DNA of 20,914 bases, taken from positions 1-20,914 of the forward strand of contig JBHIEG010000027.1 of NCBI GenBank assembly GCA_046760505.1. The letters run 5' to 3'. Within the stretch, counting starts at the first letter, position 1. Each line of letters begins with the position of its first letter. Of the stretch, positions 5,760 through 14,697 are shown piece after piece. The stretch comes from CAYFZR01 sp046760505 [NCBI: Candidatus Hydrothermarchaeota archaeon] (GTDB taxonomy: Archaea > CAYFZR01). Position numbers and translations under genes: made by a program. The notes beneath the pieces were generated by a model, which worked only from the letters and a program-made list of their open reading frames with translations, ran no database searches and had not been told where the DNA came from.

Positions 5760-5836
5760 AAAATTTCTTCTCTATGTTTATTAAAGAAAAAAATTTTTTG
5801 AGAATAAAAAAGTTATTGGATGGAAGTCTCAAAAGA

Positions 5837-5844
5837 TTTTTATC
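5837..5844 (+). promoter_or_regulatory. TATA box of htpX
   Basis: TTTTTATC is centred about 27 bases before ATG 5868. This spacing argues for the internal ATG as the real, leaderless start rather than the ATG at 5820. Confidence 0.5.
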
Positions 5845-5867
5845 GAAGGTTATATTTTCTTATCAGC

Positions 5868-6821
5868 ATGAGAATGATCGGATTACAGGTAAGGATTTGG
5901 TTGACCGTGGTTGTCCTCTTTGGATTGCTCTATGCACTGATAAGCATAATAGCCTACGTTAGAGGAATCAGTGCCCCATTCTTCTACATAGTGCTTGCAC
6001 TGATTATAATTGGAATTCAGTACTTAATTGGTCCAAAGATCGTCGAAATGACAATGAGAATAAGGTACATTACTCCATCCGAGTATCCAAGGCTCTATTC
6101 CATGGTTGAGAGGCTTGCGAGAGATGCAAAGATACCGATGCCAAAGGTAGGGATATCTGAAATACCAATTCCGAATGCATTTGCCTTCGGAAGAACCAAG
6201 GGCGATGCGAGAGTATGTGTTACAAGAGAGTTACTCAACATCCTTGACGAAAAAGAGCTGGAAGCGGTTCTGGGACACGAAATATCCCACATTAAACATA
6301 GAGACGTGGTCGTGATAACTATGCTGAGCGTAATTCCATTGGTATGCTACTATGTTTTTCTTAGCACCTTGTTCTCCGGGGATCGAGAAAGCAGGGGGAG
6401 TACCGCGCTAATAGGAATCGCGGCTTTCATCTTGTACTTTGTAACGAACCTATTGGTACTATATGCTAGCAGGATAAGAGAATATTACGCTGATTCAGGA
6501 AGCGTGGAGCTGACAAAAAATCCAACTGCATTGGCATCCGCTCTGTATAAGTTAATCAGGGGTAGCGCGAGAGTTGATAAAACAACTCTCAAGCATGTCG
6601 AGGGACTAAAGGCTTTCTTTGCAAGCGACCCATCAAATGCAAGGAAAGAGATAACAGAGTTAAGTATGATGGACCTAGACAGAAGTGGAGACATAGATGA
6701 ATATGAGTTAAAAGCCTTTGGAGAAGCAGAGATAAAGTTGACCGCCTTTGATAAATTCTTAGAATTTTTGTCCACACATCCAAATCCTGCCAAGAGAATC
6801 CAAAGACTTGCCCACATGTGA
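5868..6821 (+). CDS. htpX: HtpX-like membrane zinc metalloprotease with an EF-hand loop
   Basis: An M48-family integral membrane protease, presumed to degrade damaged membrane proteins. Two hydrophobic segments (about 10-30 and 36-56) precede the catalytic domain. The zinc site is HEISH at 137-141 with a third ligand, E205, in REYYAD. Further hydrophobic segments lie at about 147-168 and 178-201. Near the C-terminus, residues 269-280 read DLDRSGDIDEYE, a complete canonical calcium-binding EF-hand loop (D at 1, 3 and 9, S at 5, G at 6, E at 12), which is not part of the basic HtpX fold. The start at ATG 5868 (317 residues) is chosen because a TATA box lies 27 bases upstream and the first hydrophobic segment follows at once. 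The downstream GAD-domain gene starts 11 bases after its stop, so they are probably co-transcribed. Confidence 0.92.
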   Translation: MRMIGLQVRIWLTVVVLFGLLYALISIIAYVRGISAPFFYIVLALIIIGIQYLIGPKIVEMTMRIRYITPSEYPRLYSMVERLARDAKIPMPKVGISEIPIPNAFAFGRTKGDARVCVTRELLNILDEKELEAVLGHEISHIKHRDVVVITMLSVIPLVCYYVFLSTLFSGDRESRGSTALIGIAAFILYFVTNLLVLYASRIREYYADSGSVELTKNPTALASALYKLIRGSARVDKTTLKHVEGLKAFFASDPSNARKEITELSMMDLDRSGDIDEYELKAFGEAEIKLTAFDKFLEFLSTHPNPAKRIQRLAHM

Positions 6822-6831
6822 GGTAATCGAT

Positions 6832-7194
6832 ATGAAAGATGTCACGAATTTGTTGAGTGATTCAAAATCCAAGATTATACAACGCTGCATCGGAAGCGGT
6901 GGTTCGATTCTAGGCATAAAAATTCCAGAGTTCTATGGAGTTTTAATAGAAGACAAAGAATTCGCAAACGACTTAGCGAAAAGAGTAGAGGAGAAATTTG
7001 GGGTAAGGGGATACATCTCAACCGATGAACTGCCTGCATACGGCATTTCAAAGAAAGAGAAAGAAGAAATAGAAAGAGCCTTTGATGTAAAAGGCGAGGA
7101 TGTAGTGATCCTTGTTGCAACCGAAAGAGAAAAGGGAGAAGATGCACTGAGGTTCATTGTGAATGAAATCGAGGAATACAAGGTGATCAGATAA
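6832..7194 (+). CDS. Free-standing GAD-domain protein
   Basis: A 120-residue protein that looks like the GAD domain otherwise found inserted in archaeal Glu-tRNA(Gln) amidotransferase subunit GatE and in bacterial-type aspartyl-tRNA synthetase. Recognisable GatE-like blocks appear in order: DVTNLLSDSKSKII, GGSILGIKIPEFYGVL, the characteristic STDELPAYGISKKE, and VVILVATEREKGEDALRFI near the C-terminus. The enzyme's amidotransferase core and tail are absent on both sides, so it is a single-domain protein rather than a GatE gene. The frame is intact with a good ribosome site (TGAGGT, 6819-6824) before ATG 6832, so it does not look like a decayed fragment. It follows htpX by 11 bases and overlaps the end of the convergent unknown gene by eight bases. 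Its function is unknown; a tRNA-related role is possible by homology only. Confidence 0.72.
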   Translation: MKDVTNLLSDSKSKIIQRCIGSGGSILGIKIPEFYGVLIEDKEFANDLAKRVEEKFGVRGYISTDELPAYGISKKEKEEIERAFDVKGEDVVILVATEREKGEDALRFIVNEIEEYKVIR

Positions 7195-7633
7195 CGTTGA
7201 TACCCCTCTTATAAAGCTCGTATTGTATGGGGATAAACAAGAATACCAGTCTACAATCATTTCGATCTAGTTTTTTTACTTTTTCTCTCACTTTTTCAAA
7301 ATCGTATTCTCCGATGTATCCGACAGTTGAGAGTACCAGCGATAGATAAATCTCATCCACCTTTAGTTCTTTAGTATAGGTCCCCATGAGCACATTTGTA
7401 AACCTGTCAGTTTGAGAAAATTCTATCAGGGGAGTTATTACTTGAGCAAAATCTCCTTCTTGTGCCTTTATTTCAACAAAATTTTTGGCGAACGTTGGAT
7501 AAATGTCTTCCAATTTTTCGCACAGGATATTAAAATCTTCTTCGTCAATGATTTTTTTCTTGAATGCCTCTTCTATAAAAATTCTTGCTGTAGAAAAGAA
7601 AGTTCTTATGCTCTGTTCTAACTCTGGATCCAT
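7187..7633 (-). CDS. Unrecognised helical protein, 148 residues
   Basis: I do not recognise this family. The protein is acidic and helical, with no signal peptide or membrane segment and two cysteines (LCEKL and DCRLV). The ATG at 7633 is preceded by GGGATC, a weak archaeal ribosome-site match, and by an AT-rich TATA element shared with the divergent S-layer-type gene (7673-7684). The C-terminus overlaps the end of the GAD-domain gene by eight bases, tail to tail. The reading frame is long and free of rare features, so I consider it a real gene, but nothing in its context suggests a role. Confidence 0.68.
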   Translation of the reverse strand: MDPELEQSIRTFFSTARIFIEEAFKKKIIDEEDFNILCEKLEDIYPTFAKNFVEIKAQEGDFAQVITPLIEFSQTDRFTNVLMGTYTKELKVDEIYLSLVLSTVGYIGEYDFEKVREKVKKLDRNDCRLVFLFIPIQYELYKRGINVI

Positions 7634-14292: not shown

Positions 14293-14697
14293 ATGAAAGG
14301 TAGAGAAAACCTACTGTTGGACTGGCTTACAGGCTTGGTTTTGGTAATAGAGAAATTCTGTGGAAAAGAAGCCTCATTTTTAATGAGAAAAACCGGAGAG
14401 AATACCGCGAAATTATTGATAGAAAGGAGATGCCCTAAAAACCTTAAAGAATTAATTGAAGATGATGTGATGAAAAAACATGGTATGAAATTCGAATTAG
14501 AAGAGAGAGAAGATGGGATTATAGTAAGAATGTTTGAGTGTCCTTTTAATAAAAATAACCCAAACAAACTTTTTTGCCACTTCACAGATTCTTACTGGGG
14601 AGAGATAGGAAAGTACTACGATCATGAGGTTGAAGTAAAAAAAAGAATAGCAGACGGAGAAGATTATTGCGAGTTAATACTTAGAAGGAGATTTTAA
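14293..14697 (+). CDS. V4R / methanogen-output-domain-like protein
   Basis: A 134-residue protein with five cysteines. The N-terminal helix (WLTGLVLVIEKFCGKEASFLMRKTG, split over about 11-35) is followed by RRCPKNLKELIEDDV and an alternating beta segment, EDGIIVRMFECPF. The end, VEVKKRIADGEDYCELILRR, resembles the closing signature of V4R (4-vinyl reductase-like) and related archaeal output domains, which bind small molecules or metals and act as sensors; the first cysteine of that signature is replaced by arginine. FCHFTDSYWGEIG is also reminiscent. The identification is tentative. The start at ATG 14293 fits the TATA spacing, implying a leaderless mRNA. Its stop codon lies within a repeat related to the one after the gene at 4109. 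Confidence 0.6.
   Translation: MKGRENLLLDWLTGLVLVIEKFCGKEASFLMRKTGENTAKLLIERRCPKNLKELIEDDVMKKHGMKFELEEREDGIIVRMFECPFNKNNPNKLFCHFTDSYWGEIGKYYDHEVEVKKRIADGEDYCELILRRRF

What the first reader, a model, noticed from the sequence alone, without database searches (positions are those of the whole stretch)
6832..7194. Orphan GAD domain as an independent gene
The GAD domain is known as an insertion in GatE and bacterial-type AspRS. Here it is a complete 120-residue protein with its own ribosome site, co-directional with htpX. A free-standing version could bind tRNA or regulate the amidotransferase, and its link to a membrane protease is unexplained.
Basis: partly seen in the sequence, partly recalled or inferred. 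Interest (0 to 1): 0.6.

Follow-up and report, generated by a model that had tools for sequence, protein, structure and literature searches.

The report
Free-standing GatE-type GAD domain gene
A gene, probably archaeal, encodes on its own a small domain otherwise found inside a tRNA-amidating enzyme; it looks like a genuine, long-independent gene, but no second case was found and its job is unknown.

Summary
Window 6832-7194 is an intact 120-codon gene with a GAGGT ribosome site 7 nt before its ATG, 10 nt behind htpX on the same strand. Its product is a GAD domain (Pfam above cut-off) of the archaeal GatE kind. No other part of GatE was found in the window, so it is not a frameshifted GatE. 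Codon usage is gene-like.

Most likely a GatE domain became a separate gene. It falls among GatE GADs on a very long branch; the exact place is not firm. It keeps the core and the DELPxYG loop but has lost G45, H63, F92 and R112, which 31 of 31 typical GatEs and at least 5 of 6 divergent ones keep (F or Y at 92). It probably no longer does what GAD does inside GatE.

No second stand-alone GAD appeared among listed matches in at least 451 genomes, nor in phages, plasmids or viral contigs. No GAD was found in 20 htpX neighbourhoods. Whether this genome has GatDE could not be tested. tRNA binding, amidotransferase control and a protease link remain unsupported guesses.

The parts
6832..7194 (+). 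stand-alone GatE-type GAD gene, 120 aa
   Evidence: Pfam GAD above cut-off; GatE profile positions 282-398; intact ORF; codon score like the other genes
6886..7149 (+). Pfam GAD match (residues 19-106)
6820..6824 (+). Shine-Dalgarno-like GAGGT, overlapping the htpX stop codon, 7 nt before the ATG
   Evidence: sequence read
7024..7047 (+). kept DELPAYGI loop (residues 65-72)
   Evidence: alignments
5820..6821 (+). htpX-type M48 membrane protease, upstream neighbour, with an EF-hand-like loop
   Evidence: Peptidase_M48 E 1.9e-42; loop DLDRSGDIDEYE

Best explanation
The gene is a GAD domain released from an archaeal GatE. The inserted domain was copied or moved out at its natural borders, gained its own start, ribosome site and stop, and now lies behind htpX. 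It has been kept by selection as a folded protein: the core and the DELPxYG loop are kept. It has lost residues that GatE holds almost invariant, so it most likely no longer docks into, or works like, the GAD of GatE. The mechanism I think most likely is a small soluble binding protein that uses the retained DELPxYG face to contact one partner, perhaps a component of tRNA-dependent amidation or another translation protein. Shown: gene, domain, GatE kinship, loss of GatE-invariant residues. Inferred: excision, selection, fold. Guessed: partner and function.
For: Pfam and NCBIfam profiles and solved GatE chains. tblastn of GatE frames against the window: every match better than E 0.1 is the GAD stretch, within 6799-7182. 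Codon score in frame 0.297, the other five frames negative. In the tree it falls inside GatE GADs with G170, G174, G177 and G180 (95/93; end branch 1.59 against a median of 0.25). Of 13 columns invariant in 31 typical GatEs (among the 24 columns I listed), 8 are kept: A49, G57, G60, D65, E66, L67, P68, G71. Changed are G45 to A, E47 to D, H63 to S, F92 to V and R112 to E. Six GatEs with very divergent GADs keep G45 in 5 of 6, H63 in 5 of 6, F or Y at 92 in 6 of 6 and R112 in 6 of 6. If a quarter of the branch had been without selection, about 3.5 stops would be expected (p of none 0.03); for the whole branch p is 8e-7.
Against: No orthologue was found, so selection is inferred from one sequence. 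The tree place is not firm: AU tests do not reject the alternatives (p 0.37, 0.38, 0.11). The single-sequence model is poor (pLDDT 61, pTM 0.54) and its structure search gave no match at E <= 0.001, and no GatE or AspRS among the 50 rows shown, so the fold is inferred from profiles only. The own genome is not held, so GatE in the same organism is unknown. The long branch may include time spent inside a fast-evolving GatE.
Confidence: 0.6

Rival explanations
1. A relic: a GatE fragment, duplicated or left behind when GatE was lost, that is still translated but drifting towards loss.
For: No second stand-alone GAD among listed matches in at least 451 genomes; very long branch; loss of GatE-invariant residues. 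Lineages without a detectable GatE exist: G318, the genome with the nearest KorA, has GatA and GatB side by side and no GAD hit.
Against: Intact ORF, proper ribosome site, gene-like codon use; 8 of 13 invariant residues kept (p 0.009 under a neutral expectation of 27%, a rough figure of mine); clean domain borders.
Confidence: 0.17
2. A split GatE: in this lineage GatE lacks its inserted domain and the GAD is supplied in trans by this gene, rebuilding the amidotransferase.
For: The protein covers GatE profile 282-398, the inserted domain. The own GatE is unknown.
Against: Residues kept in most of the divergent GatEs (G45, H63, F or Y at 92, R112) are lost here. In the 37 GatE frames aligned the region is present in the same chain.
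Confidence: 0.12
3. A trans-acting tRNA or transamidosome factor, for instance helping the archaeal Asn-transamidosome, whose AspRS lacks a GAD, to release its product.
For: PMC9499178 (passage read) says that the archaeal Asn-transamidosome lacks the GAD domain and releases Asn-tRNA more slowly (it cites Suzuki 2015, which I did not read).
Against: The sequence is GatE-type, not AspRS-type (E 1e-22 against 5e-5). None of the window proteins scanned is a gatCAB subunit or AspRS. tRNA contacts named for GatDE are made by other domains (PMC4810234, passages).
Confidence: 0.1

Closest known systems
GAD domain of archaeal GatE (PF02938 inside NF003107/TIGR00134; solved in 1zq1 and 2d6f)
   Same: Same domain, same borders, DELPxYG loop, core glycines
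   Different: Free-standing gene; G45, H63, F92 and R112 lost; no cradle, helical or tail domain (domain names recalled); next to htpX
GAD insertion of bacterial-type AspRS
   Same: Same Pfam family
   Different: Much weaker match (PRK12820 E 5.1e-5). Four GAD-bearing frames from Methanomassiliicoccales genomes (one confirmed as AspRS) align to the GatE-type GAD profile only over its N-terminal part

Membership tests
Pfam GAD domain (PF02938) | Score above Pfam's curated cut-off over the whole model | tested here: met
   30.7 bits against 23.4, model positions 4-95 of 95
Pfam GAD domain (PF02938) | GAD three-dimensional fold | tested here: inconclusive
   Single-sequence model pLDDT 61, pTM 0.54; no structure match at E <= 0.001
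GatE (Glu-tRNA(Gln) amidotransferase subunit E) | Full-length protein of about 600-660 aa with the catalytic and C-terminal domains | tested here: not met
   120 aa; 80.2 bits against a cut-off of 456; no other GatE part found in the window
GatE (Glu-tRNA(Gln) amidotransferase subunit E) | GatE-invariant GAD residues G45, E47, H63, F92, R112 (numbering of this protein; set found here, not from the literature) | tested here: not met
   31 of 31 typical GatEs have them; here A, D, S, V, E
GatE (Glu-tRNA(Gln) amidotransferase subunit E) | GatD partner encoded in the genome | not testable with these tools
   No whole genome is held for the window
Bacterial-type AspRS | Class II synthetase catalytic core around the GAD | tested here: not met
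   120-aa protein, no tRNA-synt_2 match

The most novel reading that the evidence does not exclude
A GAD domain has become a stand-alone translation factor: it acts in trans on tRNA-dependent amidation in an archaeon (for example on the GAD-less archaeal AspRS-GatCAB complex, or in a lineage that swapped GatDE for GatCAB) through the retained DELPxYG face, and is co-expressed with a membrane protease that carries an EF-hand-like loop.
Probability: 0.08. Interest if true: 0.65.

Novelty: new variant of a known kind. Interest (0 to 1): 0.32.

Why it matters
What GAD does inside GatE and bacterial AspRS is, as far as I know, still unclear. A natural protein that is only this domain, with the GatE-specific residues gone and the DELPxYG loop kept, separates two sets of residues and would be a simple test object for what each set does. 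As one case without orthologues it remains a curiosity until relatives or the rest of the genome are seen.

Tried and rejected
Frameshifted or broken GatE: rejected, since GatE frames match only 6799-7182 of the window at E below 0.1. Chance ORF: rejected. Viral or plasmid origin: no match in phages; one match in plasmids, not significant (44% of the query, E 0.2); none in viral contigs. Conserved htpX-GAD pair: no GAD in 20 loci (in L120 the contig ends about 230 bases behind htpX). Defence gene: no PADLOC match. RNA genes: only a tRNA-Gly in the window.

Short-frame hits in G324, G308 and G314 (195, 195 and 189 aa; E 0.001-0.05) looked like candidate stand-alone GADs. Fetched, the G324 one is a rubrerythrin (Pfam E 1.2e-16); the other two read alike but were not scanned. 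They share only a short SDELPP-like stretch. Rejected.

Genomes with no GAD hit (G316, G321, G299, G305, G294, G136) turned out to have a divergent GatE below the NCBIfam cut-off, not a moved GAD. GatD lies in the same locus in G321, G299, G305 and G294. Other genomes without a GAD hit, such as G145, G280, G287 and G311, gave no GatE match either.

Structure: single-sequence AlphaFold2 and Foldseek against PDB gave nothing usable. Placing the organism: KorA points to G318 (58%, 80 genomes), RNase HII to G323, G180, G174 and G318 (49-50%, 80 genomes), HtpX to G271, G136, G274 and G294 (39-43%, 80 genomes; best in an earlier set of 101 genomes G065, 44%). The phylum stays open. Genome-contig scans found no relative of the protein and only distant KorB hits (best identity 49%). 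Paper searches on GAD, GatE and transamidosome listed no title on a free-standing GAD; I saw listings plus passages of four papers, and the library holds open-licence PMC papers only.

Full report
What is there. The gene at 6832-7194 (+) is an intact 120-codon frame with ATG start and TAA stop. GAGGT at 6820-6824 lies 7 nt before the ATG and overlaps the stop codon of htpX (5820-6821), so translation of the two may be coupled (inference). The product matches Pfam GAD above its cut-off (30.7 against 23.4 bits). In NCBIfam it matches the middle of GatE, profile 282-398 of 630, E 1.1e-22, but far below GatE's own cut-off (80.2 against 456 bits). A bacterial AspRS fusion model matches much more weakly (5.1e-5). 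Solved GatE chains 1zq1 and 2d6f match over residues 3-114.

Not a broken GatE. GatE frames over 560 aa from other genomes (with GAD-bearing AspRS-like frames, and four of the divergent GatEs, L099, L100, L101 and L103) were compared with the whole window by tblastn. The confident matches all fall within 6799-7182, the GAD; scattered others have E above 0.1; L097 matches the GAD at E 0.02; L099, L100, L101 and L103 give no match at E 1. No other part of GatE was found. Codon usage in frame scores 0.297, at the upper end of the other genes (0.16-0.30), and the other five frames are negative (the gene itself was not in the training set). GC is 0.40, htpX 0.42.

How rare it is. The protein was searched in six scans of 150, 200, 120, 200, 300 and 400 genomes. 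The sets overlap; handles run to at least G451. They are unnamed, reached from a Methanomassiliicoccales locus, so presumably archaea. Genomes with a match at the E limit of each call: 139 of 150 (E 0.001), 172 of 200 (0.001), 100 of 120 (1), 162 of 200 (1e-5), 260 of 300 (0.01) and 289 of 400 (1e-6). Among the listed matches with E <= 0.001 the smallest open frame is 307 aa (G165), so none of them is a free-standing gene of this size. The lists are cut at the weak end, so weaker matches there were not seen. Phages: none. Plasmids: one match, not significant (E 0.2). Viral contigs: none. Genome contigs: none. No whole genome is held for the window.

Where it comes from. In a tree of 35 GatE GADs plus this protein it falls with GatEs of G170, G174, G177 and G180 (95/93), on an end branch of 1.59 changes per column against a median of 0.25. 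AU tests do not reject trees in which those four GatEs (p 0.38), or the 15 GatEs of that wider group (p 0.37), form a clade without it, or in which it joins the sister group (p 0.11). So descent from a GatE is the likely reading and the exact place is open; no AspRS GAD was in the tree. RNase HII of the window (Pfam) is nearest G323, G180, G174 and G318 (49-50%); KorA (2-oxoacid:acceptor oxidoreductase alpha) nearest G318 (58%); HtpX nearest G271, G136, G274 and G294 (39-43%). The markers do not agree on one lineage and no close relative was met.

What is kept and lost. Thirty-one typical GatE frames and six with very divergent GADs (L097 of G310, which is over the GatE cut-off, and L099-L103 of G316, G136, G321, G299, G305, which are below it) were aligned with the protein. 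The typical ones are among its best matches, so the sample leans towards similarity. Among the 24 columns that I listed, 13 are invariant in the 31. The protein keeps 8 (A49, G57, G60, D65, E66, L67, P68, G71) and changes 5 (G45 to A, E47 to D, H63 to S, F92 to V, R112 to E). The divergent GatEs tend to do the reverse. In four of six the DELPxYG loop is not recognisable; G136 reads EEMPALG and G310 DEVPLGP. Yet they keep G45 (5 of 6), E or D at 47 (6 of 6), H63 (5 of 6), F or Y at 92 (6 of 6) and R112 (6 of 6). Alignment of the divergent ones is less certain. I read this as two sets of residues: one needed inside GatE and lost here, one that serves the fold or the loop and is kept here. The structural place of these residues was not examined.

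Selection. From single-base changes of this ORF, 61 give stops and 791 missense. If all of the branch had been without selection, about 14 stops would be expected (p of none 8e-7); for half of it 7 (p 0.0009); for a quarter 3.5 (p 0.03). Keeping 8 of 13 invariant columns has p 0.009 under a neutral expectation of 27% (the 27% is my rough figure for that branch length). The branch may include time inside GatE, so these are guides, not tests with orthologues.

htpX link. In 20 htpX neighbourhoods of other genomes (14 picked from the strongest full-length HtpX matches, 6 others), a GAD profile built here finds no GAD (best E 0.4). In L120 the contig ends about 230 bases behind htpX, so its downstream side is hardly tested. 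In G174, G177 and G180 a HIT-like gene follows htpX (the G177 one confirmed by Pfam).

Function. The literature at hand does not assign tRNA binding to GAD in GatDE: tail and helical domains are named as the tRNA contacts (PMC4810234, passages); [quoted passage not shown] The latter also states that the archaeal Asn-transamidosome lacks GAD and releases its product more slowly, which leaves room for a GAD acting in trans, but nothing here tests that. PMC3532385 (passages) mentions a possible editing role of GAD in bacterial AspRS. The structure model is too poor to help. My commitment: a kept, GatE-derived binding protein that no longer works as the GAD of GatE; the partner is unknown.

Verdict. 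Real and unusual, with a known domain in a new setting; one case, no orthologue, no testable partner. Interest 0.32, new variant of a known kind.

Noticed in passing
window 5820-6821, loop DLDRSGDIDEYE (HtpX residues 285-296); L120-L132: HtpX carries a canonical-looking EF-hand calcium loop between the protease core and the C-terminal STHP stretch. By motif, 13 of 20 fetched htpX loci have it (L120-L132, all among the 14 picked for the strongest HtpX match). Pfam EF-hand hits are weak and below cut-off (best E 0.0008-0.007 in the three scanned; 0.08 in the window). Paper searches for HtpX with EF-hand listed one unrelated proteomics paper and none with archaea added.
   Followed up: partly
L099-L103, L104 and L109 (G316, G136, G321, G299, G305, G294): Divergent GatE proteins below the NCBIfam cut-off. 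In four of the five aligned the DELPxYG loop is unrecognisable; G136 reads EEMPALG. GatD lies in the same locus in G321, G299, G305 and G294.
   Followed up: partly
G318 (L105): GatA-type amidase and GatB lie next to each other and no GAD hit was found, so GatDE may have been replaced by GatCAB.
   Followed up: partly
window 14293-14697: 134-aa protein with a match just below cut-off to Methanogen output domain 1 (PF18546, 22.0 against 23.8 bits).
   Followed up: no
window 7187-7633 (-): 148-aa ORF without Pfam match, tail to tail with the GAD gene (overlap of 8 bases).
   Followed up: no
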